In this document: positions 6,035 to 64,000 of the stretch, piece after piece | How the letters are laid out: the number at the start of each line of letters is the position of its first letter | How positions within the stretch are numbered: position 1 is the first letter of the stretch | DNA from: Paulownia fortunei | Lineage: Eukaryota; Streptophyta; Magnoliopsida; Lamiales; Paulowniaceae | Assembly: GCA_019321725.1 (NCBI GenBank) | Contig: CM033109.1 | Location: 19,747,993 to 19,811,992, forward strand | DNA: 64,000 bases | Reading direction: 5' to 3' | Program-made: the position numbers and the translations under genes | The notes under the pieces: model-generated | Told to the model about the DNA's origin: nothing | The model's input: the letters and a program-made list of their open reading frames with translations, nothing else | The model's database searches: none

Positions 6035-9000
6035 CTAAGCTTCCTCCTCAACATCAGACTTGAAGAACCTACGCCAAAACCAGTGTTTCTTCCAAACTTG
6101 TTCATTCATTTCATCAATGGGTACTCCCTTCGTCTCCGGCAGCAAGAACACAGCAAAGCTGCCCATTACAATGATCCAGACGGCGAAGAAGAAGAAGATG
6201 CCTGACCTCATGTGGCACAGCATTGTGAGAAAAGCTTGAGCAATGATGAAGGTGCATATCATGTTTGTGCTGACAGCAAAGAAAAATCCAGCTGTACGCG
6301 TCTCCAATGGGAATATCTCACTTGGAATCAACCAGCCTAAGGGACCCCATGACCACGCGAACCCCATAACGAATACACAGATAAGAAACACCACCAAGTA
6401 GGCATATGGCTTGGCTATGACGTTTGTTGTCTTCAAATGTTGTGCAAGAATTGCTCCTGCAAAAACCTAATTAACATAACAACCACAGACATCATATAAG
6501 GTCACCCGTCTTTTGTAATGATCGATAAAGGTTGATTCATGTATTAAATAATAATCTCTGTGTATATGCAGCCAAGATATAGAATTTGTTCATATGTGAA
6601 AAAGATTTAATAGTCTTGAATGAGATGGTGATACCTGAGAAATAAGCATTTGGACAGCAGCTTGAATAAGCAACTTCCTTCTTCCAAACTTATCGACCCC
6701 AAAGACAGCAACCAAGGTGGCAGCCGCGTTGATCGAGCCAGTGATGATAGCTGACATCAAAGATGCATCTCCCCCAAGCCCCATGGTTTGAAAAAGCACC
6801 GGAGCATAAAACATGATCACATTGATCCCTGTAAACTGTTGGAAAATTTGCAGTATTGTCCCACAAAACAGCTGAGGCCAACTCGATCGTTTCATCAGGT
6901 TTCTGAAAGGGTGCTTGATCTTCTTGGCGGTCTCGGTGGCACGGACGATTTCATCGTACTCTTTCTGCACATCTTCTACACCCCTGGTTTTCTTGAGAGC
7001 CTTGAGTCCTTCTTCTGTCTTGCCACGCTCTATCAGGCTGGTGGGCGTCTCGACGATGAGAAGGGAGCCCAAGCCAAGGAAAATGGCTGGAAATCCAGCG
7101 CCGACAAGAGAGATTCTCCAGCCATAAGTGTGTAGCTTGGAGGTGAAATAGTTCACCACATTTGCAATCAGAATCCCAACCGTGATCAGCATCTGAAAGC
7201 AAACATTGAGGCCTCCACGATACTTTGCCGGAGCGATTTCTGATATGAATAGTGGCACTGCCTGCAATAACGCAGAGTTTTTACACAATCAATAAACTCA
7301 TAAACTTTGCCAGTCCTAAACATATAATATGATGAAGGGATTAGCCTAATATGCACACTGATAGGTACAATTTGCCCTTTAATTTTAGTTTACAGTCTCT
7401 AATCTGATGCATAGATTGCAAGGAGAATTTCAATTATGATCTATTGTGACCTGTACACTTGTTAACATTAACTTTGACACTAACTTAGGGAGTGTTTGGA
7501 ACAGTTTCTTAAAAGTGTTTTCAAATCTCAACTTTTAATTACATTTCTGCTTAATTTAATTAGAATTTGAAAACAGGGTGTGGCGTGCTTTCCCTTCTCT
7601 AAAAGTGCTTATGGTAGAATTCTTTTTTTTTTATATATATTTTTACCCTAATTTTTTTTTGCTTTATCCAAAATGTGCTGCTGATATTTTTGCCATTCAA
7701 CTGTTCTTTTACCAAATACTCTAACTTCAACATATTTTTTTTCAGTTTTTCACTTCTTTTTTTCAAAGGCTAACCACTTTTTTTATTTCTTACCCACTTC
7801 TTGACAATCTTTATATTTAATCAGTTCCTTAAAAGTAGAAATTTTTACAAATACTTCCTTAATTAACTGAAAACATATGGCACCTACTTTGGTGAATGTG
7901 TTTTTAATTACCTAATTCAAGACCCCAATTATAACAAGAAGCAGACCCATGTAAATCCACAATCCAAATGCTTATTAAGAATCATTTCTATCTTGAGAAG
8001 ACAGATCATGGGCTACAATGAAATTACAATGGAAACAGACCCTAATATGGCTGAATATTATCGCTACAGACTGCAGTCACAATCAATAATAATAAGGTGG
8101 TTAATGAATCCAACATATTAATATAAGATTTTAAAGCCTACTTTATAGAATAAAATATAAGAACTTATCCAACGATAACGATCAGTAAATTTTAAAATTT
8201 TAAAATTATTTTTAAAGCTTATTATAAAATATTTTCTTTCCCACTAAGTCGAACCCCCCTGAAACTCTGTTGTTTCGATTTTGCTTTTCCCTCAGTAATT
8301 TACTCCATCATACAATTAAAAAAAACAATTTTTACTCTATAGAGTTATTAATGATGATGGAATATTTATAAAATTCCTATATTCCAAAACTATTATTTTA
8401 TTTTTTATGCTATATAATTAAATTACGGACAAATTCAGAAAATGGATATCAAGATTTATTTATTTTTTTAAAAAATAATAATAACAATTTTAAAAAATCT
8501 TGTGAAGTCGAGGGCGGCCCAACTCCGTCTCTGAATCAAATTATCTAATCTTTTAAATGAACTTATCATATTGGGTTTTCAAAATTTTAATATTACTAAA
8601 ATTCAATTTTTGAATATTTGCTATATCATTCAATATAATTCAATTAGATTAAAAAAAAGCGGATTAAATTAATATATGATGCCCTAAAAAATAGTCAAAT
8701 TAACTAATCAACCTACTTTTTAGAATGGAGGAAGTATACAAATTATTTTTAGCTAATTACAATAAGAATATGATCGAGATATACCTAAAAATAGTATAAT
8801 TATTTTTAGCCAATTATAAGAAGAATAAGATCCATATACGTAAATAGATTATAATTATTTTTAGCTAATTACAATAAGAATATGATCGAGATATACCTAA
8901 AAAGAGTATAATTATTCTTAGCCAATTATAAGAAGAATAAGATCCATATACGTAAATAGATTATAATTATTTTTAGCTAATTACAATAAGAATATGATCA

Positions 9001-10052
9001 AGATATACCTAAAAAGAGTATAATTATTTTTAGCCAATTATAAGAAGAATAAGATCCATATACGTAAATAGATTATAATTATTTTTAGCTAATTACAATA
9101 ATAATATGATCGACACATACCTAAAAAGAGTATAATTATTTTTAGCCAATTATAAGAAGAATAAGATCCATATACGTAAATAGATTATAATTATTTTTAA
9201 CTAATTACAATAAGAATATGATCGACACATACCTAAAAAGAGTATAATTATTTTTAGCCAATTATAAGAAGAATAAGATTCATATACGTAAATAGATTAT
9301 AATTATTTTTAGCTAATTACAATAAGAATATGATCGAGATATACCTAAAAAAAGTATAATTATTTTTAGCCAATTATAAGAAGAATAAGATCCATATATG
9401 TAAATAGATTATAATTATTTTTAGCTAATTACAATAAGAATATGATCGAAATACGTAAAAAGAGTATGCAGTCACAATTATCGGTACCTGGTTCCCGAAT
9501 CCGATGCCGGCACCCAAACAAATCCTTCCGGCAATGAGCATGTAAAGATCAACCGCCGCCGCATTGAGGACAACGCCGACCAAGAAGAAGGCCGCCGCCA
9601 TCTGCATGGTGCGCTTCCGCCCAAACTTCTTGCAACAAAACGATGCCGCCCAGCTGCAGACCACCGCCGCCAGGTACAGCGACGACGTGAACAGTTGGAG
9701 CAACTGGTTATCAAATTTGCAGTAGTTATTCTCTTTCGCTCTGTGCTTCTTCTCGTAAACACTTGGGAAGAACTTCAACAAGAAATCATCCATGGATGTC
9801 ACTCCTCCTGCATGCATCAAACAATACTGAATCAAATCAAAATTTGAACCAGAAAAAAGAAAAATAAACAAATAAAAATAAACAAGAGTTACACCATGTG
9901 TATGTATATGACGTACCTGATATGCCAACGTCGTAGCCAAACATGAGGCCACCAAAGGCTGCGATAAGGGAACAAAAGACGACCTGTTTGGTGAGCTTGG
10001 CCGGAAAATCGCATCCCCCGCCCTTTTCTGCCGCCACGATGTGGGGTGCCAT
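6035..10052 (-). CDS. Sugar transport protein STP6/STP8-like, proton/hexose symporter
   Basis: Seen: four exons, 10052-9917, 9807-9488, 7261-6635 and 6466-6035, joined by GT-AG introns of 109, 2226 and 168 bp, encode 504 residues, the normal STP length. Hallmarks in order: GGLMFGYDVGISGGVTSM in the first helix (the Asp is the proton-coupling residue in STP10), NNYCKFDNQ and MLCHMRSG (the two lid-domain cysteines), GRRKLL, ETPTSLIERG, QQFTGINVIMFYAPVLFQ (sugar-binding helix), AFAWSWGPLGWLIPSE and LPETKG. Known: STPs import hexoses across the plasma membrane with protons through 12 helices. FVMGFAWSWGP and the PHW/KHWFW tail favour the STP6/STP8 branch; that assignment is an inference. No stop or frameshift is seen. 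The third exon's acceptor is the AG at 6468-6467; the nearer AG would break the frame. Intron 2 contains a tandem array. Promoter GA and GGT repeats lie upstream. Confidence 0.94.
8741..9466. repeat. 112-bp tandem array (dimeric higher-order repeat) in STP intron 2
   Basis: The phrase TCCATATACG (variants included) recurs at 8831, 8943, 9055, 9167, 9279 and 9391, always exactly 112 bp apart, giving about 6.5 copies. Each unit is itself two diverged ~56-bp halves: one contains TTTTTAGCTAATTACAATAA, the other TTTTTAGCCAATTATAAGAA. The array ends ~20 bp from the 5' splice site of the intron in transcript sense, so it is the first thing transcribed after exon 2. Confidence 0.9.
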
Positions 10053-25445: not shown

Positions 25446-25873
25446 GGGCAAACCCCACCCCTCCCCAAATTTATTTATGGTTGCCCTAAACGTAACATGT
25501 ACCCCTAAATTTACAACTGTAATATTTACCCCTAAATTAAATATTTGAACAAAATTATCCTAAATTCAATGAATTTAGTTTTGAGTATATTTTAAGTATT
25601 TTTCACCCCAATTTCAATTTGAAATTCTTTTTTAATTACAAAAAATAATTTAAATGATAATATTTTATAAAGGTATTTAGTAACTTAAGTAATTCAAATT
25701 TAAAAAAAACTTAATGAATAACATAGTATAATAAATACACAAAAAATATTAAACATGAAAAATTTATTTTGATTATTTTAATATAAAATAAAGTATTAAC
25801 TATTTAATCTAAATGAATTTTAAACTCTTTTGGATAAAGATGAATAAGTATATTTTTGCAAACTCAATTTATA

Positions 25874-25904
<31 letters not shown>

Positions 25905-26499
25905 GCATAAGTTGAATAAAAATCATTTTTGCATCTTAATTTAAAAAGGTCCAAAAATTATTCAAATATATTTTTGTTCAATTTTATGTCTATAAAGATA
26001 TTTTTAAGTATCAATGAGATATATTTATTTATTTTTCTCCAAAAGAGTTCATAATTCATTTAGATTAAATAGTTTTATTTTGAATTCAAATAATCAAAAT
26101 TATTTTTCATGTTTAATATTTTCTTGTGTATTTATTACTATTTTATTAATTTATTTTTTAAAAATATTTAATTACTTAAATTATTAATTACTTTTTCTAA
26201 GAAAATATGTATAATTTAATTTATTTTTTAAAATTAAAAAGAATTTAAAACTAAATTTAGGGTGAAATATACTTAAAATATACTTAAAATTATATAAATT
26301 CATTGTGTTGATATCAATTTTGTCCAAACATTTAATTTAGGGGGTAAATGTTACATTTGTAAGTTAATGGCTATTTGCAACCATAGGTGAAATTCAAAAG
26401 GGTTTATGTAATTTATCTAAATGGGTAAATATTATAATTATAAGTTCATGAGTGGTGTTTATGATTATATGTGAAGTTCGGGATTATGTATTTTGCCGT
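25446..26499. mobile_element. Foldback element with ~400-bp terminal inverted repeats
   Basis: The left arm 25446-25875 and right arm ~26015-26499 are inverted copies; for example TAATAAATACACAA, AATATTAAACATGAAAAAT and ACTATTTAATCTAAATGAAT occur in the left arm and as complements in the right arm in mirrored order. The ~140-bp loop contains a TA microsatellite. An 8-bp repeat ATTTTATA at 25438-25445 and 26500-26507 may be the TSD, but it is AT-only and could be chance. Non-coding. Long TIRs suggest a Mutator-like or foldback type. Confidence 0.65.
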
Positions 26500-29500: not shown

Positions 29501-30804
29501 TAGATTTTCTTTTCTAAAATTTCACAATATATTATTCCATTAAAGATGTCATTTGCAATTAAACTTGAGTTTTTTATTTCCTTATAAAAATTGCGCTGTT
29601 ATAAATATATGAACCTTATAAAATTAAAAAATTCTAATTATTCTTTATATATAAAAATTAATATATACTCTTTATGTTGTTGGAGACACTTTAAAATTCA
29701 AAATTTGATCTTATTCATTTATTTTTTTATAGAATTATTTACAATATAAGATAACTACGAATTAGTTTTTCAAAATTTACTCCATTTAAAAAAACAAGGA
29801 TATGATACTTTGATCTTTAAATAAATTTCTTTTAATTTTTTTTATCAAAGGCTAATGTAGGATTTAATACAGTAAAGTTTAAGGCTAAATTTGTTAAATG
29901 AATTTTACCATGAATGACATATTGATACATGAATTAACATATAGTTTAAAAAATACCTAAATTTTACCGTAAATGGCAAATTATTATATACTAAATGAAA
30001 TTCTTTTAGTTTTTCTTACAATGGCACATGTACACTTTTAGACTTTATCCAATTTTAATTCTTGTTTTTATTTTTTATATTATATTATATCTTATTAAAT
30101 TAGATTATTTTGTTACCAAGATTTTATCATAAATATCAATTGATACCTTAGTTTTTATAATTTGTAAGCGTGCAAGTTTTAAGTGACACATAATGATTAT
30201 TGTAAATATTGAATTGATATATATTTAACAAAATATTTTAGTTCTTCTGCTAAATTTCTTACAATGACATTTGTACCCTTTTTAATCTACTTTTTTTGTT
30301 TTTTTTTATATTATATTTCATTAGGTTAAATCAAATTTTATCTATTAATAACATAAATTTAAGATTTTCTAACAATATGCGTCCATACAAATAAGAATAA
30401 AACGTTTATAATAGAATATAAGAGATTGATATCATAATATGTTTTAAAAAAGAATACTAATTTTGTAACTAAAATTTATGAGGTGAGACATAAAATAAGA
30501 TTTGTAAATAACCTATTAACTCTTTATTAAGAGTTTAAAGTAATATTTCTTCTTTTGAACTTTTTTGGACTTTTCATCTTATTGACAAGGTCTAAGTATT
30601 ACAAAATATTCGAAAATACAATAAAAATATAGTAAGTATTTTTCTTATACTCTCTACTCTTTTTCTTAAACTTTTATATTAAAAATTAGTTTCCATATCT
30701 CATCTTCTTAATTAAAAAAATATAGCTCTCATTAAGGTCAGTTTTAATTTTTAATTTTTTATTTGAGTACAAGCTATTAATTTTTTAGTATGTTTGTTAT
30801 TATT
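26508..30804. repeat. AT-rich, gene-free DNA with old diverged direct repeats
   Basis: No reading frame of note. Diverged copies: 27900-28530 and 29880-30600 (shared AAATTTATGAGGT, AAAATTCTTTTAG and TGGACTTTTCA); 28870-29250 and 29450-29830 (shared TTTGCAATTRAA, ATTATTCTTTATATAT and TTTGATCTT); and 27848-27905 with 28650-28715 (TTTGAATCCACATCTCCT). They look like very old duplicated non-coding sequence, perhaps decayed transposons. Confidence 0.6.
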
Positions 30805-32615
30805 TGATAACTGCATATATTTGACATATTTTTGTATCAAAGTTTTTATTTTTTTTCTTTGTTCTTATTAATATTATAATTTTATTAATATTTTGTATTA
30901 TGGAATCAATGAACAAAAAGAGATAAAAAAGAGTCAAAATAAAACTAAAAAAAACAACACGTTTCGTGAGTAAGTTAGGAGATAATATTTTATTGGATCA
31001 AACAAATATCATAATTAAAAGAAAATAATTATTTTTGCCTATGTCCATTATGTGTAGATCAAAATATATACAACAAATCATTTGAACTTTGCAAATAATT
31101 ATTGGGCTTGCAATAAATTCAAAATAAACATGTTTTTAAACTTGTGCAGTTTTCGTATCTTGGGCATAACTTTATATTCAAAAGCCCTATGTACTTGAAT
31201 CTTACTTCATTTGAAAGCCAATAAATAGAACTACAATTTTGTTATTGGAAGTTCGACCCAATTCAGCCTTGATTAAAATAGAAAATTTATCCAAATGTGT
31301 GTATTGGAAGGAATTTATCTATATTAACACTTCTTCTTAAATCAAGCATGATTTGTCTCTAATGGTTAGAATTAGGTGATTCAAGTTAAAAAATGAAACT
31401 AACAGAAAATACACAGCCTTCATATTGATCATTTTTTAAAATTAACTGATTTCATAGAGAAAAATGTATGACACATTTTAAATTTGAAATAGACATATGA
31501 ATTTATAACATATTTGAAGTAAATTTGGAGTACAATGGAATGAATTTGGAGATGTTAATTTAAACACTATTCTACTATAAATAGGGGTTCTTGGATATCA
31601 TTCAAGACAGATAAAAACCCTTCAAGGGGAAATAAAGTTTTATTATTGTCTTTTTTATGCTACGTTTTCTACTAGTAGAAATGTATTCTTTAGTTTCTCT
31701 TTTATTTTTAGTATTTTCTACTTTTATTATGTTTTTCTAAATTTTATTTAGTTTAGGAGAAAGGTTGAACCTCTTGATGGAGGAAGAGAAATAGTTATAA
31801 AGATGCATAATGTTCAATTGTGTTGTATTATTATTTTAATTTTTTATTAAAAACTCATTGTTTTGTAGTGATTCTTGATTTATTTATCACCAATGACAAC
31901 AAATACTTGAGTTCATTTAACTTATTGTATGGTTCTACTATACCAACTGCTAACGTAAAATCTTGATTTGTTGTAGACACATGTGTGTATAAGTAGTTGA
32001 TCTCTAATCAATATAAAATTTGTAGATAAATCTGTTAGCTTCAGTTTTCAACTTAAATAAACTAATTCGAACCACCATGGACAAATTTATGCTCGATTTA
32101 AGGAGATGTGTTAGCATAGATAGATTCCTTATAATACACACACTTGGATGAATTTTTTGCTTTAATCAAAACTGAATTGGGCCGAGCTTCCAATAGCAGA
32201 ATTGTAGTTTTATTTCTTGACTTTCAAATAAAGTAAGATTTAAGTTCATATGGCTTTTGAAGATAGAGTTAAGCCTAAAACACGAAAACTGCACAAGTCT
32301 AAAAACATGTTTATTTTGAATTTAATACAAACCCAATAATTACTTGCAAATTTCAAGTAATTTTTCACATATATTTTGATCTACAAATGATGGACTTAGG
32401 CTAAAATTACCCTTTTCTTCTAATTGTGATGCTTCTTTAATCTAATGAAATATTATCTCCCAACATAATCAGGAAACGTATTGTCCTCTTTAATTTTATT
32501 TTGACTCTTTTTGATCTCTTTTTATTCTTATTAATAAAACCATAAGACTAACAAGATAAAGCAAGAAAAATATAAAGAATTTGATACTAAAATATGTCAA
32601 AATATGCACTTATCA
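30805..32615. mobile_element. LTR-like sequence followed by an inverted copy of its first ~550 bp
   Basis: From 30805 (TGATAACTGCATATATTTG) to ~32070 the plus strand matches the LTR family at 51345-52920 (shared TTTCATTTGAAAG, CTTGATGGAGGAAGA, TTTTTCTAAATTTTATTT). From 32615 down to ~32070 the minus strand repeats its first part (TGATAAGTGCATATTTTGAC, CTTGTGCAGTTTTCGT, CCCAATTCAG). The second copy has no purine tract next to it, so both are probably solo or truncated LTRs. Confidence 0.7.
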
Positions 32616-38440: not shown

Positions 38441-39414
38441 CTGCAGCCCCTTACAAACTATTGTAATATCTTGTAGAGCAATGTACCCTATAAGAGCATA
38501 TTATAAGTGGTAGGTGATTCTAGTAATGGATTTTTTATATTTCTCCTATCTCAAGTTCTATTGAAGTATGTCAACAAGGAGTTCATAGTTGATGTGAGGT
38601 ACTTCTTGTTGATGGAGAATTAGTACATGAAGTACTTCATTAATTATACCAACTCGATAATGGATCCGGCGAGCAACTAGTTAAACCAGATCAATTGCAT
38701 TGGATGAGAGTCGTGTGAAGATCTTGCAGTAGATTGTATTAGTCAAGTCATATGGTTAGATTTAGCCTATAGTGCTCATGCAGATCACTAGTACCATCAT
38801 ACTCTGTGATAAGTGTATGTTTTTATATTTATTTGTATCAATTCTTCTATATCTTCTTTACTTTGTTCTTGTTAATAATAGATTTTTATTAATGTTTTGT
38901 GTGTGATAGGAGTTTGAGAATGAAAAGAACGAAAATAAGCCAAAATGAAGTTGAAAGAAGCATTCTTGGGCCAAATTGACACGGTTCCACTATGGTAGTA
39001 TTTGTATTTTGGGCATAAAAGTCTGATACAAAGGTCAATTGACATGATTCTTATCTTATTGGAAAGATAAGAGATGTATCTATAACTTTGATGTTTGCAA
39101 GGTTTTTCAATTCAATTGATTTCAAATAGTAAAATTTGGTTAAAGAGTCAAACATGTACTGAAACTTTCAGATATGGCAGTCTTTGTATATCTGTTATAC
39201 CTCTATTCAAAAATGTGATATTGATCTGATTCAAATGGTTAAAGATAGCTAACAGATAGGGATACAATTTTTATGAAGACACCAAAGTCCAATTCAGCCT
39301 ATAAAGAGGTTAAAAATCAGTTGAAAGGGATACACAGTGTCAGATAGCCATTTTGGAGAAGAAGAAAACAGTAGCATCAGCGCCTAAGCGCCGTGCTTAC
39401 TGTCCTCTTCGAGA

Positions 39415-41842: not shown

Positions 41843-44800
41843 AAATGCAAGAAGGAAAGTGTCTGAAGGCAAGAAGTATTTTATAGTTTGGCAACCCTAT
41901 AGCATGTCCTAAAGGGTACATATAACCCCCTTCAGACGAAATTTGAGCCCTCTTGTGCATACTCTTAAATTCTCTCTATGTTCAAAAGTTGGTAAAATTC
42001 ACAAGTATTTTCCTACGTTCTCCAGTCCGAAAATACACAAAGTAAGTTTTGTGATGTTCCCCATAAACATTTAAAAGTGTGTTGAGTGTTCTCTTAGAAT
42101 TAAATCATCGAATTCAACCTATTAGCATAGTACGAAGAATCTTGTGTGGGTGTTCGAGTTGTGGATTAACTTCAAAGGAGGTGCGCTTGGAAGTTTAAGT
42201 GAATTAAGTCCAATTTTAAGAGTTTGATCAAGGTACTGAACCTCTTGAAAAGCGAATTGATTCATGTCCTACCCATGTCACCATCTAGAAGCAATAGAGG
42301 TAATTTTTTGCTTCCTCTAAATCAAATTAATGTATGCATGACCTTCTTTGCGAAACAACAGGATACAAGGTTTTTTTTTTTTTTTTTCATACGATGCAAA
42401 GAAATGTTAAAGTTAAAATTTTAATCCCGCAACCCAAAACCCACATTCCGCCTGTTATACAAACCCAACATATTCATGACCAAGTATTTAATTTCACAAA
42501 TTCGATATTTTATATATATTGTATTTGTATTGATAGATTTGAATTTATAATAATAAATTATTTGAGTTTGTTTGGATGATCTCACAATACAATTGAATTT
42601 TAAATCTTTTAACTCCTATTTTAAGTTATTTTTTAAATTATTGTGGTGGATTTTAAATCCATCTTTTATGAAGTTATTTGAAATCCTTCCCCCAAATTCT
42701 CTCATCAAATTCAAATCCTCCAATTCAAATACAACCTTAGAAATTTTAGATGTTTTGTACCCTTGAATTTTCTAGTTTATTTGAATTTTTGCGCTTTTGC
42801 TAAGATTTTAAATAATGTATATATATTGATTGATATTTAAGGTTTTTGTTTCGTCACCATATATTGTTACAACATGCTCTTATCACATCTAAATTTTAGG
42901 ACGTGACACGTACACATTCAAGATTGAACGAAAATATTTGTACTTTAAAGTTGAATCATATATTATACATATTATGCATATTGAGTATTATACTCAACAA
43001 TTAACACTCCATATTATTTTTTTATTTAATTCAATTTTTTAAATTAAAAATATTTGAGTGGGAATTATTTTTAGTTATAAATATGGATTATAATAATCAA
43101 TATGATAGTATTTGTTATCTTATGATTATATCAAGGGTCTGTCAAAGCAATAAATGAATTATGTAGTGACATAATTTTATCGTGATAAAGACTGTACATG
43201 GATAAGTTGCGATGGTTTATTTTCCCAATTATGTAAATGTATTTTGTTTGGATTTATTATATGGAATAACATGATTGAAGAAAAAAATTGAGAGTAAACT
43301 TAGAGGGGAGAGAGAGGAGAATAATATAGTTGGAGAAAAAATGAAGAGAGAAAAAGCTTAACACACTGGGGAGACCAGAGGAGAAAAGACGACAAAAACT
43401 ATCTTGAGATTTAACGTTTTGGATTTTAAATTTTTTTATTTAATTTTATATTATATTTTGTATTATATATTATATATTATATATTATAAATATATGCCAT
43501 GTGTATAAAATATTTTTTTAAATATACGCTTGAATTAATCATAAACACGTAACATGCATATATGATATAATACAAGATATAAAATAAAATTAAAATAAAA
43601 TATCCAAAGTATTTCTATATGATATTAATTTGGTAATTACATTAAAAGACATACTACGATAGTTATTCTAGCACTCTCACTTTTAAAAAATAGGATAGAT
43701 TTGTCAAAACAAAAACTAAATTGCATTATTACTAAAAATTAAAATAAAATTTAAAAAGAATACCGTATGATTCCATTATTAAAGAAAGGGGTAATAACAT
43801 TTTTCCATCCAAACTCCTAATATTTGGTGGAAATTTCATAACTTGCTCAACACATATTAACGTTGTAGCACTTTGTAAACTAAATTTTATAAGATTTCTC
43901 ACTTTGCTATCTCAATTTAATAAATTTATAATTTTTTATATATATATACTTGTACTTTATCTCTTTTTTATTACTCATTCATAAATATTAAAATTTAATT
44001 AAACTCAAGTATAATTTAAAAAATAAAAGTATTATAATTTTATTACAATTAATTATTTTTATATTTAGATTTTTATTAGTGCTCCATATCTGTATAGGAT
44101 TTTGCTAATTTATAATTTTATTTAATCTCAGTTTAAAAATTGATAAATTAAATTAAAGAATAAAATTTATACAATAAGAAAACTGAATAGAAAAAAATAA
44201 AAATTAATTTACTAGCAATATATTTCTTATTAAAATAAGTAGTAATTAAATTCAATTTTTGTAAATGAGTAATACAAAAAAAAAAAGATAAGATATAGAT
44301 ATATACACAAATATTTTTTTTTAATTTTTTAAAATGAAGTAGCAAAGTGAAAAATATTGTAAAATTTAACAGAAAATATGCAGCAACTTTAACAAGTATC
44401 ACTGCATGACAGAATCTTGATAGAATATTATAGTTTTCGATGGTAAAGTGCCAAATCCTTTTAGTCGGAATGATTTGATATTTTTTTCCTTAAAAAAAAA
44501 TACTCATATTTTGAAAGATTTGGTGGTGGAAGTCAAACTAGGTGAGTCTAGGTGGACATTCAAGAGCATAAATTAGTGTTAAAATCCTGTTCTTGCTACA
44601 TTAATTATATTCTACAGTAAACATATTCGATCAAATTTTCCCACTCTTATAAAGTTTGCGGCGTAACATTCTTAATATTGGTGTCGTTTTTATCATGGTA
44701 ATGTCCTTTCATTCTTTAATTAATGACTAATTACGCCATTATCATCGGTGGTAGTAGCACATGTTCTTCAACTTGCATGCGTTGCGGCGTAGAATTCTGT

Positions 44801-51260: not shown

Positions 51261-51344
51261 TAATATTCCTTCTTAAATCACCTCTTCTGTCCTATTCTAT
51301 CCTAATCCTTCTAAACTCCCAATTATTTCAAATCCTCTAAGGAC

Positions 51345-52920
51345 ATATTTTGATATACTTTTGTATCAAATTATTTATACTTTTTTTTATTCTTATTAAT
51401 ATTATTATTTTATTAATATTTTGTGTTATGGAATCAATGAATATAAAAATATCAAAAGAAACATATTTATGGACTTGCGTAGTTTTTGAATTTTGAGCAT
51501 AACTTCATGATCAAAAGTCCTATGGACCTGAAACTTATTTCATTTGAAAGTCTAGAAATAGAAGCACAACTTTTATGTTGGAAACTCAACTCAATTCAAT
51601 CTTGATTATAGTAGAAAATTTATCAAATTGATTGCACAAAATGGATCACCAAAATTCGGATCAGAGTTCAACCCAATATTGACTTATTTGACCAATTAGG
51701 TCATATCTCTTAAACCCAAATTTATTTTGGGCTAAAATTTGGATATGTTATATATAAAAGGAAATAAACAAATTTGCTAAAGACAAGATGGTAAGAAAAT
51801 GTATTAAAATGGTAAAAACATAAGCTGCAAGTTGCTGTTACTGTTAAAAAATGGCTCTTGGATATGATTTGATAATTTGACCATATCTCCTTCACCCGAT
51901 TGCCAAATTTGACAAATGATATATTAAAATATATCAATACGGAAAGATCTACAATTTTAGTTCTTTATGCATTTTCAAAATCTGGCTACATTTGACCGAA
52001 AAATACAATTTAATTCGGTAGGTGAGGACTTGGTGTAACAACTTACCAACTTTTGGCAACTAGCATACCACTTGATTAACCCTCCATTATTTGTTTGACC
52101 TCTAGCTTACTCCAAATACTATAAATAGGTCATGTATTAAGCTTTTAAAAAGGGGGGGGGGGGATAAAGAGTTTCTTTATGCTAAGTTTTCTAATCTGTA
52201 TATTTTCTAGTAATGTAAGTTTTCTAATAGTAATAGAAATACATTCTCTAGTTTCTCTTATATTTTTAGTTTTTGCTACTTTTATTATGTCTTTCTAAAT
52301 TTTATTTTGGTGAGGAAAAATGGTGAATCTCTTGATGGAGGAAGATGAATGGTTATAAGGGTTGAAAATATTTAAGAATGTTGTATTATTATTTTAAATT
52401 TTGATCTAAACCCTGTTTATTTTGTGTTATATATCTCCAATGGCACAACAAATATTTGGGTTCATTTATCTTATTATACAGTTTTACTCAATTGACTGCT
52501 AATGTGAAACCTTGATTTATTGTTGACGAAGGTGTGCATAAATGCTTGATTCTATAAATAAGTGTTGGCGTTAAGAGATAATTTTTAATAGTAAGACAAT
52601 ATCATGATTACCTTATTACATGAGTTATTTGATAATATATTCTCATTAGAACCTTCGTTATGTATGGATTCCAATTGTGGTAATTAAAAGAGGTAAAAAT
52701 AATAAATAACTGTTTCTCTATCTAAACTCAAGAGTGGATCCCTAATACTTAATACTTTTATTACTTTGGTTTTTCTTTAGTTACAACATGCACTAAATTT
52801 TTCATATATTTTGAATCACATAAACTCCATCTTTTTAGAAATATAAACTTGAATTCTTCAAACAACTTCCCTGTAGATTGACCTCGGACTTACGAGAAAT
52901 TTATTACTTAATACAAAAAC
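51345..52920 (+). mobile_element. LTR copy in plus orientation (left arm of large inverted repeat)
   Basis: It matches the complement of 52950-54557 over its full length by eye at roughly 85-90%: CAAATTTATTTTGGGCT, TGGCTCTTGGA, TCGGTAGGTGAGGACTTGGTG, TCTTGATGGAGGAAGATGAA and AAACTCCATCTTTTTAGAAA all recur. The first few bases (TGATAAGT) are degraded. An 11-G run is at 52153-52163. It is not joined to an internal region of its own, so it is a solo LTR or one arm of an inverted duplication. Confidence 0.75.
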
Positions 52921-52949
52921 TTAACAAAAACTTCCTACAACTTTAAGGT

Positions 52950-54557
52950 TGCAAACCCAAGTGCAGGTTGTGTTAAGTAATGATTTTTTCGTGTGTTCAA
53001 GGTCGATCCATAAGGAAGTTGTTTGAAAAATTCAAGTTTATATTTCTAAAAAGATGGAGTTTATGTGATTTAAAACATATGAAAATTTTAATGTATGAAA
53101 GAAAAACCAAAATAATAAAAGTATTGAGAATTAAGATCCACTCTTGAGTTTTGGATAGAAAAATAATTATTTATTCTTTTTACCTTTGTTAATTACCACA
53201 ATTGAAATCCATACATAATGAAAGTTCCAATGGAAATATATTATCAAATAACTCATGCAATAAGGTAATCATGATATTGTCTTACTATTGCAAATTATCT
53301 CTTAACGCCAACACTTATTTAGGAGATCAATCATTTATGCATACCTTCGTCAACAACAAATTAAAGTTTCACATTAGTAGTCGATGGGGTAAAATCGTAC
53401 AATAAACTAAATGAACTTAAGTATTTATTGTGCCATTAGAGATACGTAAATAAATAATCACCACAAAACATGCAGGGTTTAGATCAAAACTTAAATAATA
53501 ATACAATATACTTAAATATTTTCTACCCTTATAACTATTCATCTTCCTCCATCAAGAGGTTCACTCTTTTTTCTTAGCAAAATAAAATTTAGAAAGACAT
53601 AATAAAAGTAGCAAAAACTAAAAATATAAGAGAAACTAGAGAATACATTTCTATTACTATTAGAAAACTTACATTACTAGAAAACATACAAACTAGAAAA
53701 CTTAGCCTAAAGAAACCCTCTACACCCCCCCTTTCCTCTTAAAAGTTTAATGCATGACCTATTCATAGTACTTGTAGTAAGCTAGATGTCAAACAAATAA
53801 TGGAGGGATTAATCAAGTGGTATGCTAATTGACAAGAGTTGGTAAGTTGTTACACCAAGTCCTCACCTACCGAATTAAATTGTATTTTTCAGTCAGATGC
53901 AACTCAATTTTGAATATACATAAAGAACCAAAATTGTAGATCTTTCGATACTGATATATTTTCATATATCATTTATCAAATTTACAGTCGGCTGAAGGAG
54001 ATACGGTCAAATTACCGAATCATGTCCAAGAGCCATCCTTTAACCGTAACAATAAATTACAGCCTATGTGTTTACCATTTTGGCACATTTTCTTACCCTC
54101 TTGTCTTCAGCAAACTTGTTTATTTATCTCTTATGTATAACATATCCAAATTTCAATCCAAAATAAATTTGGGCTTAAGAGATATGATCCAATTGGTCAA
54201 ATAAGTCAATATTTTTCTGAACTCTGATCCGAATTTTGGTGATCCATTTTGTGCAACCATTTAGATGAATTTTCTGTTATAATCAAAGTCGAATTGGGCC
54301 GAGCTTCCAACAGAAATATTGTACTTCTATCTCTTGGCTTTCAAATGAAATAAGCTTTAGGTGTATAGGGTTTTTGATCATGAAGTTATACTCAAAATAC
54401 AAAAACTGCATAAGTCTAGAAACATGCTTCTTTTGATCTTTTTATATTCATTGATTCCCTAACATAAAATATTAATAAAATAATAATATTAATAAGAATA
54501 AAATAAGAAAAATATAAAGGATTTGATATAAAAATATGTCAAAATATGTACTTATCA
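52950..54557 (-). repeat. 3' LTR of the Athila-like element
   Basis: On the minus strand it starts TGATAAGTACATATTTTGAC at 54557, directly after the purine tract, and can be followed to TTTGCA at 52950, giving a 1608-bp TG...CA unit. It contains ATGGATCGACCTTGAACAC near its end, typical of this LTR type. Confidence 0.75.
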
Positions 54558-54570
54558 AATTCCCCCACAC
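54558..54570 (-). other. Polypurine tract
   Basis: The minus strand reads GTGTGGGGGAATT immediately before the LTR's TGATAAG. Such a tract primes plus-strand DNA synthesis in LTR elements. It fixes the orientation of the element and the LTR boundary. Confidence 0.75.
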
Positions 54571-55129
54571 TTAACCCTTGCTTGTCCGAGCAAGCCTAAA
54601 ACAAACCTAAACTAATCCACTTTCATAGGAAATCACAATTGCATTTAACATATGCAACAAGCCTTTAAACCCCTAGGTGGCCCATAGAGGACGAGTTATA
54701 GTCTCGTGAAGGTTTTCAGCAGTGATACCCACAAATACCTATAATAACTATCTTCCAACTATTATTATCAGGAAGCAACAAAGTAATATAGAAATAAAAT
54801 CAAACAAGTGTTGAGTTTAACTGTTAGTCATTCAAAAGTCACTACATTTCCACAGTAAGCATACTCAAGTGTGTGTGTGGATAGTTAATGTCAATAGTGA
54901 TGAGACTATGTATTCTTCAAATAAGTAAATTCTCACAAAACCTTACAAAAATCATCACCCAATTTCTAATAGAAAAGTTAAACATCATAGGTTCTTTCTT
55001 TGGTGCAAATCTCCACTACACTGAAGGCATCACACGAAATCAAAAGATCTTCAATAAAGGTTGTAATGGGACCAAAGGGTAGTGATATAGCTAATAAATA
55101 AAAGGATATGATGCAAAAAAATTTCTAAA

Positions 55130-55690
55130 AACTTCATGGAATTAGAGACATAGAGTTTATCGATAAATAATTCTCAAACTCCACAAATTTCAACACTAAA
55201 AATCTCGCAGACGGTGAAATAATTTTTTTTTCACAGTATGATCTACAAAAGATAGCAAACTATCATAAAAACCATTAACATTAAGAGTACCTATAGGTTT
55301 TTGGTGAATGTTGAATAATTCCTCCAGTGTACCAAAACCATTAGGTAGAATGATGAATACATCAGCATTGTTTAACATGTTAGGCATTCTATCATGAATA
55401 TGTGACACTTTTAGCTCATCTCTAATGATCATACCTGGGATATTCTGTACTGCTAAAATTTTTGGGATAAATCCCATAACTTTGACTCTTCATACATAAG
55501 CAGAAATAATAACACTCCCCATTAATCCCAAACTACATCTCCGTATACTAAATGAATTTTTCTTTTTGCTAAAGTTCTACCAAGGTTATTGGCTGCCCTT
55601 ATAAACTTACCATTTTTTTCCTATATTGGATCCACAAAAAATACAAATGCAATTGAATTTGTGAGTTGAAGAAACTTCTATTTTTTATTT
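55130..55690 (-). pseudogene. LOG-family cytokinin phosphoribohydrolase pseudogene inside retroelement
   Basis: Minus-strand pieces in order: CICIFCGSNIGKK (the N-terminal CxFCGS motif), KFIRAANNLGRTLAKRKIHL followed by VYG, LGLMGSV, KVMGFIPKIL, HDRMPNMLNNADVFIILPNG followed by FGTLEELF, then HQKPIGTLNVNGFYDSLLSF and SPSAR. Known: LOG enzymes release active cytokinin bases from nucleoside monophosphates; the PGGxGTxxE motif carries catalytic residues. Here it reads PNGFGTLEE, and about ten residues after LEEL (usually EVITWAQLGI-like) are absent. Lesions: frameshifts after CGSNIGKK, after VYGD and in the A run at ~55225, and a TGA near 55490. There are no introns although plant LOG genes have several. 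It lies between integrase and 3' LTR in the element's orientation, the slot where Athila elements carry an env-like frame. Two ~280-nt blocks stay open. I infer capture of a host mRNA copy. Confidence 0.82.
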
Positions 55691-55829
55691 TATTTTTGTA
55701 TTTTTTTATTTTTGGAAAAAAAGTTGTGCAAAAATAGAGTGAATATGGTGATATTTATTGAGGTGTGAACAGGGAATGCATTTATTGCATGTCTTTTTTT
55801 GTCAAAAAGGTTGAAAATAAGGCTGCAAA

Positions 55830-56535
55830 ATTTAAAAATTACCTACTTACACGTGAATGTACATGTAGTTGTGATTGTGGCTCATATTTTTCTTTGATTT
55901 TACATCTAGTAACGACTTAAACGCCCTCTATGGGTTAAGGATATGCTTCACATCCAGTTTTCTTATAAACTGGTAAACATGATCTTTTAATATCAAATTC
56001 CCAAGACTATAAAGCTCATATTCATTTCGAAAATAATTTTATAAATCAAGAATTGCACGTTGTACCAATCCACATGAATGCATCTCAAGAGTCAATATAA
56101 TGTGATCTAAAGACTACTTACTCAATCTATCTATAATGAACTTAAGTTTATCTTCTCGATTTTTAGAGACCATTTCTAAAGAACGATACTTTGTGTTGCA
56201 AGTACATCTAGCACAATTATAACAAAACTTTTATTTTTTGGCTCTTCGTTTTTTTGAGTATGTGCTTTTACCAAAACCAGGTATGTATCTAGTAGCAAAT
56301 CTAGAAACTCATGTGAAAACTCACCTGCTATTACCTTTGCTTCAATTATCCATCGTATGTCCTCCGAGATGATCTTTTGCATAAGCATCCTCAATCTTTC
56401 AATTATAATTTTATAAATTTTCAAAATTATATTTTTAGGAAGAAAAAGAAATCGTTTCTTGAGAGATAGAAAAATATCACCCATTTTGAAAAGAACAAGA
56501 AAAGAGAATAAGAAAAGTAGAGAAAATTTGTACAA
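55830..56535 (-). pseudogene. Unassigned reading frame between integrase and LOG-like gene
   Basis: The first 119 codons are open (56535-56176). They include MGDIFLSLKKRFLFLPKN and IIEAKVIAGEFSHEFLDLLL. Further conserved-looking text follows in other frames: SLEMVSKNREDKLKFIIDRL, HSCGLVQRAILDL and KLDVKHILNP. It is basic, Leu/Ile-rich and helix-like; the N-terminus is hydrophobic (LLFLFSFLVLF) but may not be the true start. I do not recognise the family. Same orientation as pol and the LOG-like gene. It could be the element's env-position protein or a second captured host gene. Confidence 0.5.
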
Positions 56536-56763
56536 ATATTTCAGTTGTTTGGGAAACTGACAAGTCTGACTTTAATAGCCAGGGAGACCGTTATCCACCA
56601 CTTAAACAGGAAAAGAAAAAAATAAAAGAAAAAAAAACTTTCAAAATAAATAAAATTAGAGAAAATGAGTATATACAACACTAATCATAACAAGGGTTAA
56701 AAAGAAAAAGAATTTCCTCTTGTGAAAATTGATTTTCTAGAAATGGTTTAACTCTTTGTCCAT

Positions 56764-59700
56764 TTACTTTGAATATGTTACCATTTCTAGGATTTTCAAT
56801 GTCAATCGCCTTATAAGGATATACTTTTTTACAACAAAAGAACCACTCCACCTTGATCTCAATTTTTCAGGAAAAAAATGCAATCGAGAATTATAAAGCA
56901 AAATCTTTTGACCAACCTCAAATATTTTTCTTGAAATTTTATTATCATGAAAATCTTTGATTCTTGCTTTATAAATTTTAGAATTCTCATATGCATCATT
57001 TCTCAGTTCTTGAAGTTCATTGATTTGCAATTTGCGCAATTTTGAAACTTTATCAAGGTTAAAGTTAAACATTTTGATTGTTCAATAAGCTTTATGTTCA
57101 AGTTCAACAGGTAAATGACAAGGTTTTCAATAAACTATCATGTAAGGAGACATGTCTAATGATGTTTTGAAAGCAGTTCTATATGCCCAAAGTGTATCGG
57201 TAAGTCTAAGAGACCAATCTTTACAGTTTGGGTTAACTATTTTTTACAAAATTTATTTTATCTCCCTATTTGTAAGTTCAACTTGTCCATTTGTCTGATG
57301 GTGATAAGGGGTTGAAACTCTATGTATGATTCCATATTTCTTCATTAAAGTTCCAAAAACTTTATTACAAAAATATTTTTCCCCATCACTGATAATAGAT
57401 CTAGGAATTCTAAATTGACTTAAAATATTTTCTTTTAAAAAATTTATCACTATTTTGTGATCATTGTTTCGATAAAGAATTGTCTCGATCCATTTTGAAA
57501 CATAATCTATGGTAACCAAATGTAAAGAAAATCAAATAATACTGGAAATGGCCTCATAAAATCAATACCCCAATAGTCAAAGATTTCAATCACTAGGATA
57601 GGGTGTAGGGGCATCATATTTTTCTTTGAAAGATACCCTAACTTTTGACAATTTTCACAACTTTTTCAGAAAGTGTAAGTGTCTTTGAAAAGAGTTGGCC
57701 AATAAAATCCACATTACAAGAATTTCGTAGTAGTTTTCTTTGCTGAAAAGTGACCACCACATGTTTGTGAATGACAAAATTTGACAATATTACCTATCTA
57801 ATTGCCAGGCACACACATCTTCGAAAGATTTGATCCTGATAGTATTTGAATAGATATGGATCATCCCATTAAAAAAATTTCACCTCAGCCAAAAACTTCT
57901 TTTTGTCTTGAGAGTTCCAATGCAATGATATCTTTCCTGTCACAAAAAAATTAACAATGTCAGCAAACCAAGGTAAAATAGAAATATTAAATAGTTGTTC
58001 ATAAGAGAAAGTGTCATTAATTGGTGTGGTTTGAAACGAGTCATCACAAATGAGTCTCGACAAATGATCAGCCATCATATTCTCTACTCTCTTCTTATCG
58101 CAAATCGTAATATTAAATTCCTAGAGTAAGATAATCCACCTAATCAGTCTTAGTTTGGCATTTTTTTTACAAAAAATATTTTAAAGCTGCATGATCACTG
58201 AAAACAACAACTAGTGAGCCAACAAGATAACATCAAAAATTGTCCAATGCAAAAACTACAACAAGTAATTCTTTTTCAGTTGTTGTATAATTTAATTGAG
58301 CATTATTTAAAGTTTTACTTACATAGTAAATAACATATGGTTTCTTATCTTTTCTTTGTCCCAAGACAACTCCAACAACATAATCACTAGCATCACACAT
58401 TATTTCAAAAGGTAAAGTCCAATCTAGAGGCTGCATGATTGGAGCAGATGTAAAAATATTTTTGATCTTAACAAAAGCATTTTGATAATTTTCAATCCAT
58501 TCAAAATTAGTGTCTTTGTTAGAAGATTACACAAAGGCTTAGATTTTATACTAAATTTTTTGATAAATCTTCTATATAAACCAACATGTTCTAAAAATGA
58601 TCTAACCTCCTTCACAGTCTTTGGTGTTGGTAAATTGGTGATTAACTTAATTTTAGATTTGTCAACCTCAATACCTTTTAATGAAATAATGTGTCCAAGA
58701 ATAATACCAGTTGTTACCATGAAATGACATTTCTCCCAATTGAGCACAAGGTTCTTTTCTTCATAGCTAATCAAAACTTTTTCTAAATTAGATAGGCAAT
58801 CGTCAAATGAATTACCAAAAATAGAAAAATTATCCATGAAGACTTCAAGAAAACATCCAACCATGTCACTAAAAATATTAAGCATGCATCATTGGAATGT
58901 AGATGGTGCATTATATAATTCAAAAGGTATCATTCGATATGCAAAAGTACTAAAATGACATGTAAAAGTTGTTAATACTTGATCTTCAAGTGCAATTGCA
59001 ATTTGATTATACATAGAATATGAAAAATGAAAGGTAATGTCCCGCAACTCTTTCTAAAATTTAATTTATGAAAGGTAATGGAAAATGAATTTTTCTAGTA
59101 ATAAGTTGAGTTTCTTATAGTCAATGCATATTCGTCAACCAGTAATAGTTCTAGTTTGAATTAATTCATTATTCTCATTCTTGACTACAGTAACTCAGAT
59201 TTCTTAGGTATAACTTGAGTAGGACTTACCCATTTGCTATCAAAAATAGGATAAATGATTCAATTATCTAAGAGTTTAATGACCTCATTTCTCACTACCT
59301 TTTTTCATATTAGGATTTAGCCTTCGTTGCATTTCTCTAAAAAGTTTAGCATTTTCTTTTAGATAGATGTTATGTGTGTAAATGAAAGGATTTATACCTT
59401 TAATATCAGCAATGGTCCATCCTAAAGCATTCTTATGCATTTTTAGAGTTTCAATCAATTTACCTTCTTGAGATGCATCGAGTTTGGAACAAATTATTAT
59501 TGAAAAAGTCTCATTCTCACCCAAGAAAGAGTATTTCAAATCAATTGGTAAAAGTTTTAAATCAACCACGGGATATTAATCTTGACTAGTTTAAAAATTT
59601 CAAAAATTTCAGCATTTGAGTTCAATTTCTGAGTTGCTTGCAATCTTTGAAGAAAGTGTGCTAGAGGTAAATGTTTTTCTTTTTCATCATTTTCACACTT

Positions 59701-59934: not shown

Positions 59935-60466
59935 AGAAGCAGTCAGTGTTGAAAGTGTCTTCTGATCTCATTGATAACTTGTGAAGTGTGATTATTGATG
60001 TTTATTTGTTCATGCATAAATGCTTGCAAAGTCTCCTTAAGGGATTTTGTATGTGGAGTTGGATAAGAATGAAAGTTTGGTGGTTTTTGTGAATTCAGCG
60101 GTTAGATATGGTTATCATCTCACCAACTGAAATTGGGATGATTTCTCCATTGTGGATTGCAAGTTTCAAAATATGGAGAATGGAAAGGTTTTTTTTAATA
60201 TGTTCATGAAATTTTCTTGTATTGGAATGTTTGGATATTCATTGGTGGAGTGCCCCAAAAGTTTACAATTGCTACAAACTTCTTCATCTTGCACATTTTT
60301 TATTTCCTTTATTTTCTTAAGTTCCATCGCTTCAATTTTTCTTGTTAAACTAGCAAGTCTAGCATTTAGATAATCTTCTTGGCTACTATTAGCAAGATTA
60401 GATTTAATAGAACATTCGGAAGAATTAACACTATGACATGATTGAGAATTTGACCCAATTTGTTTT
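59935..60466 (-). pseudogene. gag: gag C-terminal fragment of the Athila-like element
   Basis: Minus-strand reading ARLASLTRKIEAMELKKIKE, then VCSNCKLLGHSTNEYP, a zinc knuckle of the CxxCxxxGHxxxxC type whose last Cys is Tyr, then NPQWRNHPNFSW, a phrase characteristic of Athila-like gag. Stops follow. It begins abruptly at 60466, where the GRF-type gene starts on the other strand, so the N-terminal half of gag is lost. Confidence 0.75.
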
Positions 60467-62374: not shown

Positions 62375-64000
62375 AAGTTGTGTTGTAATTTTTGGTCACA
62401 CGGCAAACCCTTTTGTTGTGTACCTCAACTCCACAATTACTGCATCTGAGTATTTTTTGTTGCCTTTTGAGCTATTGTACATTTTCCATAACCTTTAGCT
62501 TGTCTCTTGATCTCTTCTTTTTCTTCTCTTCATTCTCATCAGCTTCCATTTTTCTTACTTTTGTTGGCCTACTAGCAGGCATACCAAAATTTGGGGGTAG
62601 GGGAGGAATAAATTCTGATGATTTCCACTCATTTCTTCCGTTTACGGGCATAATGGTTGGGGCATACCTCTCCTTTCAAGTGTCACATGGTAATACTTGT
62701 GAGTATAATTTTATATATTCCAACTCTGGTAATGTATAGCACCGATAGCATGCTTGCATTGGATTCCACTCAAATCCCATTCATGCACCCATATGTTCCA
62801 TTCTTCAAGTCAACAATGTATATTGCCCTATCAGAGCATAAAATAGTGATAGTCATCTGTGATGGAAATACAATCCCCCAACTTCTCAACATTATTGTCA
62901 ATCAACTTCTTGATTTTAGTACACAATGTTCCTATCAATTTCTTTTGGGCTTTGTCCTTATATTCATGCATCATTTTCATCAAATATTCCGTTATCCACT
63001 CAAGAATTGGCATAATAGGCTTCTCCCTTACATCCAAAATATACAATTGAAATATTCACACCCATTGTTCAACATGTCAAACCTAAGGTAGACATTGAAA
63101 TATGACCTACTCCTTTGTTAACATAGCTTTTCATTAAACCACGCAGTTGCCATCTCATCTAAATTAGTCTTTCCATTCATCCTTCTCCTAAATTCAGTAA
63201 CTATTGTGGCCTTAGCAGCCTTTTACAAAGCACTCTTAAATGCAGGACCTCTAAATCCAATATTTTAAAATTATTGTGCATGTGCTTAACACAAAACCTG
63301 TGATCAGCATTTGGGAACACCTCCTGAAAATCTTGGATTAGACCCTTTTGTTTATCAAACATGGAACTATACTCATAATCATTTTCAATGTTCAAATCTA
63401 TTTTCAAGAGGGGCAAAAACCAATCCCAAGTGTCTCGACACTTCTTATTAACCACAACATAGGTAATATGGTAGATATTATTGTTGGGGTTAATCCCTAC
63501 AACTGTTATTAACACTCCCCTATCAGGCCCTTCAAATGACACTCATCTACCCTAATAAAAAGCCTACAGCCAGCAAAAGATCCTATTTTCACAACATGCA
63601 AACAGAGATAAAACCTGACAAACCTGTTCTCAGCACTAAACTGATATGATCCTATGATTATAATACTACCAGGATTTGTTCTTTTTATTTCATCTCCATA
63701 ATCCCACAACAATGAATACTGCTCATCTGGAATCCCTTCAATCATTTCAAGAGCGCTCATTTTCATCATATAAGCTTGATTGTTTGAGATGTGGCATCTA
63801 ATATCCTCCATGACATCAATTCTAAATTTGTTCATATTTCTTTTAGAGTCACACTGAATTTATGCAAATATTTTCCAGACAACGAGTTGGATTTCATATT
63901 TCTTACATGAAAAGTTATCCCATAAGTGTGAGTAGGGTTATAATGCATTATTTGAAATGTGCATTCATTTGTAACTTTAAGTCCATGAAGCTTCCACCCA
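62375..64000 (-). pseudogene. MULE (MuDR-type) transposase, broken and cut by window end
   Basis: Minus-strand domains in order: N-terminal zinc-ribbon-like part (TFQIMHYNPTHTYGI, ~63930); ALEMIEGIPDEQYSLLWDYG and IKRTNPGS (~63700); MULE catalytic domain with VDECHLKG (first Asp), GINPNNNIYHITYVVV, DTWDWFL, DKQKGLI (second Asp) and FPNADHRFCVKHMHNNF (63200-63600); the block ILEWITEYLMKMM (~63000); a SWIM finger remnant DLSGIQCKHAIGA (~62780); and a CCHC knuckle CSNCGVEVHNKRVC (~62420). Lesions: a frameshift near 63525 within the first catalytic block, another near 63835, and stops around 62700. Known: cuts and pastes Mutator-like DNA elements. The gene runs off the right edge; no TIR was found. 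Confidence 0.85.

What the first reader, a model, noticed from the sequence alone, without database searches (positions are those of the whole stretch)
54558..56760. A LOG-type cytokinin-activating gene carried inside an LTR retrotransposon
Between integrase and the 3' LTR, in the element's orientation, lies an intron-less LOG-family gene with the CxFCGS motif, a near-intact PGGxGTxxE motif and an IHQKPxGxLNVN block. The host family is intron-rich, so this looks like a captured mRNA copy. If active copies exist elsewhere, the element could spread cytokinin-releasing enzymes. I recall short LOG-like proteins with IHQKPIG annotated in many copies in plant genomes; this position would explain their number.
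Basis: partly seen in the sequence, partly recalled or inferred. Interest (0 to 1): 0.85.

Follow-up and report, generated by a model that had tools for sequence, protein, structure and literature searches.

The report
Dead cytokinin-enzyme gene inside a retrotransposon
A jumping element in this plant DNA carries a worn-out copy of a gene related to plant hormone-activating enzymes; relatives of the gene occur in hundreds of copies in another plant, and a few such elements had been reported before.

Summary
On the minus strand a decayed Ty3/gypsy element reads gag remnant, RT/RNase H, integrase, an orphan ORF (ORF-X), a LOG block, then polypurine tract and LTR start at 54558/54557. The LOG block (55681-55208) aligns without introns to an intact 217-aa Paulownia protein (65% over 159 aa). 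This copy is dead. A Paulownia gene model fuses an ORF-X piece to LOG. LOGs of this type are multicopy: 111 of the 120 listed rows (333 sequences, 20 chromosomes) are from Reevesia. The 30 sampled rows form one clade apart from Arabidopsis LOG3 and LOG8 (100/99). The idea is not new: PMC9289625 reports the LONELY GUY (YgdH) domain in Citrus and poplar gypsy elements. Not met in my searches: the Paulownia and Reevesia members, loss of the lysine after the active-site arginine (134 of 134), and a KRKLNLTLSL-type tail. No assay, no dN/dS; the own genome could not be searched (14 requests, all answered busy). Whether the Reevesia copies sit in LTR elements is untested.

The parts
60166..60465 (-). 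gag remnant with a zinc-knuckle-like CSNCKLLGHSTNEYP stretch
   Evidence: read from ORF list; no Pfam family above cut-off; assignment is inference
58233..59575 (-). reverse transcriptase and RNase H pieces, frame-broken
   Evidence: 58888-58424: PF00078 E 1.3e-5, below its cut-off; 58526-58233: PF17919 E 1.9e-26 and PF17917 E 6.9e-18; 59575-59285 has no Pfam hit and is assigned by eye
57253..57531 (-). integrase core
   Evidence: PF00665 E 1.9e-9
56764..57081 (-). probable integrase C-terminal part
   Evidence: no Pfam hit; assigned by eye from position and a recalled motif (KLRSRWSG)
56176..56571 (-). ORF-X, extra ORF of unknown function between integrase and LOG
   Evidence: one relative in the search, Paulownia P0039, 86% over 71% of the query; no Pfam family; fold model of low confidence, pLDDT 51
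55208..55681 (-). LOG pseudogene, intron-less, broken
   Evidence: tblastn of P0121 residues 2-160 at 55678-55226, 65% identity, and of P0040 to 55208; ORF 55489-55196 is PF03641
54558..54570 (-). polypurine tract GTGTGGGGGAATT
   Evidence: sequence
52968..54557 (-). 3' LTR (start marked by polypurine tract and TG; end at about 52968 inferred)
51338..52917 (+). inverted copy of the LTR, tail to tail with the 3' LTR
   Evidence: 88% identical over 1562 columns without gaps; relation to the element unknown

Best explanation
The block is a dead member of a Ty3/gypsy (probably Athila-type) retrotransposon family that took up a spliced LOG-family coding sequence long ago and kept it as an accessory ORF between integrase and the 3' LTR. 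It belongs to the LOG family by homology; that its relatives are LOG enzymes is not shown. Shown: position, strand, absence of introns, decay of this copy, ORF-X plus LOG pairing also in a Paulownia gene model, one clade of the sampled relatives. Inferred: capture by template switching onto a host LOG mRNA during reverse transcription; amplification with the element; intact copies make a LOG-fold protein that was useful to the element, either by releasing cytokinin bases from nucleotides and so favouring dividing cells, or in a changed role.
For: Domain order and strand. Colinear intron-less match to an intact Paulownia LOG, while peanut LOG genes mostly have 7 exons and 6 introns (PMC13257298, passages). 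Paulownia P0001 starts with 22 residues matching ORF-X (16 of 22 to the window, 17 of 22 to P0039) and continues as LOG. Multicopy: 111 of 120 listed rows are Reevesia, 333 member sequences, 20 chromosomes (tally). Eight Paulownia-type proteins (four named Paulownia, four unnamed ENA) are 94.9-99.5% identical pairwise, which suggests recent amplification. One clade of 30 rows against AtLOG3, AtLOG8 and two bacterial LOGs, support 100/99. The fold of P0121 matches 2a33 best, E 3.3e-18. PMC9289625 section 12 reports the same domain in Citrus and poplar gypsy elements.
Against: Direct linkage to gypsy genes is shown at one locus only (this window); for Paulownia it rests on ORF-X in one gene model, for Reevesia on copy number alone. 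The host comparison has only two plant LOGs, so a host LOG subclade with the same traits is not excluded. No 5' LTR was seen. Athila membership rests on recalled motifs and on position. Protein databases list mainly open gene models, so intactness is biased.
Confidence: 0.82

Rival explanations
1. A processed LOG pseudogene inserted by a LINE into an old gypsy element at this locus only.
For: Intron-less and broken.
Against: No A-run of 7 or more in 160 nt downstream and no exact flanking repeat beyond chance; ORF-X plus LOG pairing in a Paulownia gene model; same orientation as the element.
Confidence: 0.05
2. A host LOG subfamily that expanded by other means (tandem duplication or DNA-transposon capture), with the gypsy element only a neighbour.
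For: For Reevesia only protein names and chromosomes are known, not context; Reevesia pubescens is described as hexaploid (PMC12343791, passages), which raises copy number somewhat.
Against: The window places LOG between integrase and polypurine tract; copies on 20 chromosomes, with eight 90% clusters of 12-30 members among 111 rows, exceed what sixfold ploidy gives.
Confidence: 0.1
3. The LOG ORF is a neutral passenger that the element drags along.
For: No expression or activity data; window copy dead; active-site arginine lost in 28 of 134 relatives.
Against: 217-aa frames shared by Paulownia and Reevesia at about 63-64% identity; a neutral simulation to that distance left no stop in 6 of 300 runs, indels ignored; PGGFGTLEE residues are kept in 123-139 of 141 and the LxLxL tail in 46 of 77. 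Database bias towards open frames weakens this.
Confidence: 0.2

Closest known systems
Gypsy elements with a YgdH (LONELY GUY) domain in Citrus sinensis, Citrus clementina and, without the authors' filter, Populus trichocarpa (PMC9289625, section 12 read; it cites Steinbauerova et al. 2011)
   Same: LOG-family domain carried in Ty3/gypsy elements of eudicots.
   Different: Other plants; no sequence of those elements was available here, so common origin is untested.
Athila-like elements with a LOGL4-like extra ORF (Steinbauerova et al. 2011, Genetica; paper not held, abstract recalled)
   Same: Extra ORF in the 3' region, similar to a LOG gene (recalled).
   Different: Species and sequences not seen by me, so whether they also hold ORF-X is unknown.
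Phalaenopsis gypsy elements with an AlkB m6A demethylase ORF (PMC9289625, abstract, passages and section 12)
   Same: Host-type enzyme fixed as an accessory ORF of a gypsy family.
   Different: Different enzyme; activity shown in vitro there, none shown here.
Arabidopsis At2g37210 (2a33) and At5g11950 (1ydh); the names LOG3 and LOG8 are recalled
   Same: Fold and PGGxGTxEE motif; P0121 is 48.7% and 45.4% identical.
   Different: Lysine of the RK pair replaced in the relatives; basic plus LxLxL tail, which I do not recall in the Arabidopsis proteins; no introns in the window copy.

Membership tests
LOG / PF03641 | significant match to the family profile | tested here: met
   E 9.2e-20 for the window ORF
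LOG / PF03641 | PGGxGTxxE motif | tested here: not met
   PNGFGTLEE in the window copy, one residue off; in 141 relatives the single residues are kept in 123-139
LOG / PF03641 | active-site arginine followed by lysine (a trait of the four PDB LOGs compared) | tested here: not met
   R in 106 of 134 relatives with a residue, K in 0 of 134; K in 4 of 4 PDB LOGs. Its role in AMP binding is recalled
LOG / PF03641 | phosphoribohydrolase activity | not testable with these tools
   needs an enzyme assay
Ty3/gypsy LTR retrotransposon | RT-RNase H before integrase, one strand | tested here: met
   (RVT_1 itself is below its cut-off)
Ty3/gypsy LTR retrotransposon | polypurine tract and TG start of the 3' LTR | tested here: met
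Ty3/gypsy LTR retrotransposon | paired direct LTRs with target-site duplication | tested here: inconclusive
   no 5' LTR in the window; the element may be truncated or run beyond the window
Athila lineage | RT phylogeny within Athila, no additional RNase H | not tested
   no reference RT set at hand; lineage is inferred from recalled motifs

The most novel reading that the evidence does not exclude
Element-borne LOG is a remodelled, nucleus-directed protein: it lost the canonical lysine next to the active-site arginine and gained a conserved basic plus LxLxL (EAR-like) tail, so it may act with TOPLESS-type co-repressors or on nuclear nucleotides to dampen host control of the element, rather than simply making cytokinin.
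Probability: 0.15. Interest if true: 0.75.

Novelty: new member of a known kind. Interest (0 to 1): 0.42.

Why it matters
It offers a mobile-element explanation for a large multicopy LOG expansion (333 Reevesia sequences among the 120 listed rows) and warns that LOG gene counts in plant genomes can be inflated by element copies. The shared residue and tail changes give a testable hypothesis on why a retrotransposon would keep a hormone-enzyme fold.

Tried and rejected
Own-genome copy count: the genome search was asked 14 times, each time answered busy, so there is no genomic context of other copies. Viral contigs: one scan gave one relative at 43% identity, on an IMG/VR contig that I did not examine. 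ORF-X fold: low confidence, not used. TSD and poly-A around LOG: none found. Dating by LTR divergence was rejected because the two LTR copies at 51338-54557 are inverted and not shown to belong to one element (K2P 0.131). The reading that the whole 3.2-kb palindrome is a single LTR was considered; I prefer two tail-to-tail LTRs because the homology ends at TTACTTAAYACA on both sides, but a second unit at 30802-32615 with inverted ends keeps the question open. Papers: searches found none; one search listed 23, of which I opened PMC9289625; one search gave that paper again; one search listed three, not opened; some searches concerned other points.

Full report
What is there. The window is AT-rich (30.5% GC). 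Two of its ORFs were searched against the large protein collection, and both found plant proteins first; ORF-X is 86% identical to a Paulownia fortunei protein, so the source is probably Paulownia or a relative (inference). On the minus strand a broken Ty3/gypsy element reads gag remnant, RT, RNase H, integrase, ORF-X, LOG, polypurine tract, LTR start. Beyond the gag remnant lies a MULE transposase piece (PF10551, E 6.6e-12), and no 5' LTR was found in the window.

The LOG block. ORF 55489-55196 matches PF03641 at E 9.2e-20 and 2a33 (At2g37210) at E 6.6e-18. Against the intact Paulownia protein P0121 the match runs from residue 2 to 160 in one frame, 65% over 159 aa, without an intron-sized gap. 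The copy is dead: four stops in that frame, a stretch that reads only in another frame (RKIHLVYGD), PNG for PGG, and a gap of eight residues (QIVSWAQL in P0121). No match to the C-terminal 50 or so residues was returned. Peanut LOG genes mostly have 7 exons and 6 introns (PMC13257298, passages), so an mRNA source fits.

Is it part of the element? Same strand, and a place between integrase and polypurine tract; no poly-A run or exact flanking repeat beyond chance. Paulownia P0001 begins with 22 residues of ORF-X and goes on as LOG, so the pairing is not unique to this window.

Relatives. The 97-aa query gave 38 proteins: 36 Reevesia pubescens, 1 Paulownia, 1 unnamed ENA. The profile search scored 8000 candidates and listed the best 120 of 7998 hits: 111 Reevesia rows (333 member sequences, 20 chromosomes; 60 rows with 194 members have a representative of 195 aa or more), 4 Paulownia rows (5 members), 5 ENA rows (8 members). 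The 7998 hits are not a count of element copies; ordinary LOGs are expected among them. The genomic context of Reevesia copies was not seen. Eight Paulownia-type proteins (four named, four unnamed ENA) differ by 0.5-5.1%.

Tree. I chose 29 of the 141 fetched relatives (16 Reevesia and 8 Paulownia-type, plus P0001 from Paulownia, P0026 and P0037 from Reevesia, and P0030 and P0132 from ENA) and the window piece. These 30 rows form one clade against AtLOG3, AtLOG8 and two bacterial LOGs, support 100/99. The window row groups with P0001 (87/78, not strong) inside the Paulownia set (100/98); it fills 41% of the columns. Only two plant host LOGs were available, so this does not prove a single capture, and vertical and horizontal descent cannot be told apart.

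Sequence traits. Among 141 relatives (134 with a residue there) the lysine after the active-site arginine is I (73), M (56), V (2), T (2) or L (1); the arginine is kept in 106, and is C in 15 and H in 10, as expected of decay at CpG. The relatives were picked by similarity to the query, so the sample is not independent. Four of four PDB LOGs have K. Of 77 proteins that reach the C-terminus by my pattern, 46 have LxLxL in the last 12 residues (shuffled rate 1.2%) and 29 end exactly KRKLNLTLSL; Paulownia-type tails read KRKLKLTLSL or KRKLNLTLSL with single changes. 31 of 77 lack it, some as near variants and some as other tails. The EAR reading of LxLxL is recalled knowledge. The predicted fold of P0121 (pLDDT 69.5, residues 198-217 below 50) matches 2a33 at E 3.3e-18.

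Selection. A neutral simulation to 64% identity left no stop in 6 of 300 runs, and to 76% in 25 of 300. This suggests constraint, but indels were ignored, the database shows open frames preferentially, and no dN/dS was possible.

Prior knowledge. PMC9289625 (abstract, passages and section 12 read) screened 121 angiosperm genomes and reports YgdH, the LONELY GUY domain, in gypsy consensus sequences of two Citrus species and, without its filter, Populus trichocarpa, in line with Steinbauerova et al. 2011. I recall that abstract as naming two Athila-like elements similar to LOGL4; the paper is not held. PMC7264820 and PMC6317226 were seen as passages: extra ORFs between pol and 3' LTR are the most frequent kind according to the first, and the terms log and cytokinin do not occur in either main text.

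Verdict. A real, element-borne, dead LOG copy; a new member of a reported kind, with new detail on spread and on two shared protein changes whose meaning is open.

Noticed in passing
51338-54557: A 3.2-kb inverted repeat (arms 88% identical without gap columns, about 50-bp centre) made of two LTR copies tail to tail next to the element's polypurine tract; or a single palindromic LTR.
   Followed up: partly
30802-32615: A second unit with the same LTR ends in inverted arrangement (arms about 600 bp, 80%), single core block, no target-site duplication seen by eye; a further LTR fragment at 38807-39137.
   Followed up: partly
63201-63542: MULE transposase domain (PF10551) on the minus strand beyond the gag remnant.
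   Followed up: no
56176-56571: ORF-X, an orphan ORF with a hydrophobic stretch near its N-terminus, matched in the search by one Paulownia protein, with a piece fused to LOG in another.
   Followed up: partly
8741-9467: Direct repeats at about 112-bp steps, about 96% identical.
   Followed up: no
25500-26373 and 43881-44368: Two further palindromes (76% and 69% identity); their ends do not look like the LTR ends.
   Followed up: no
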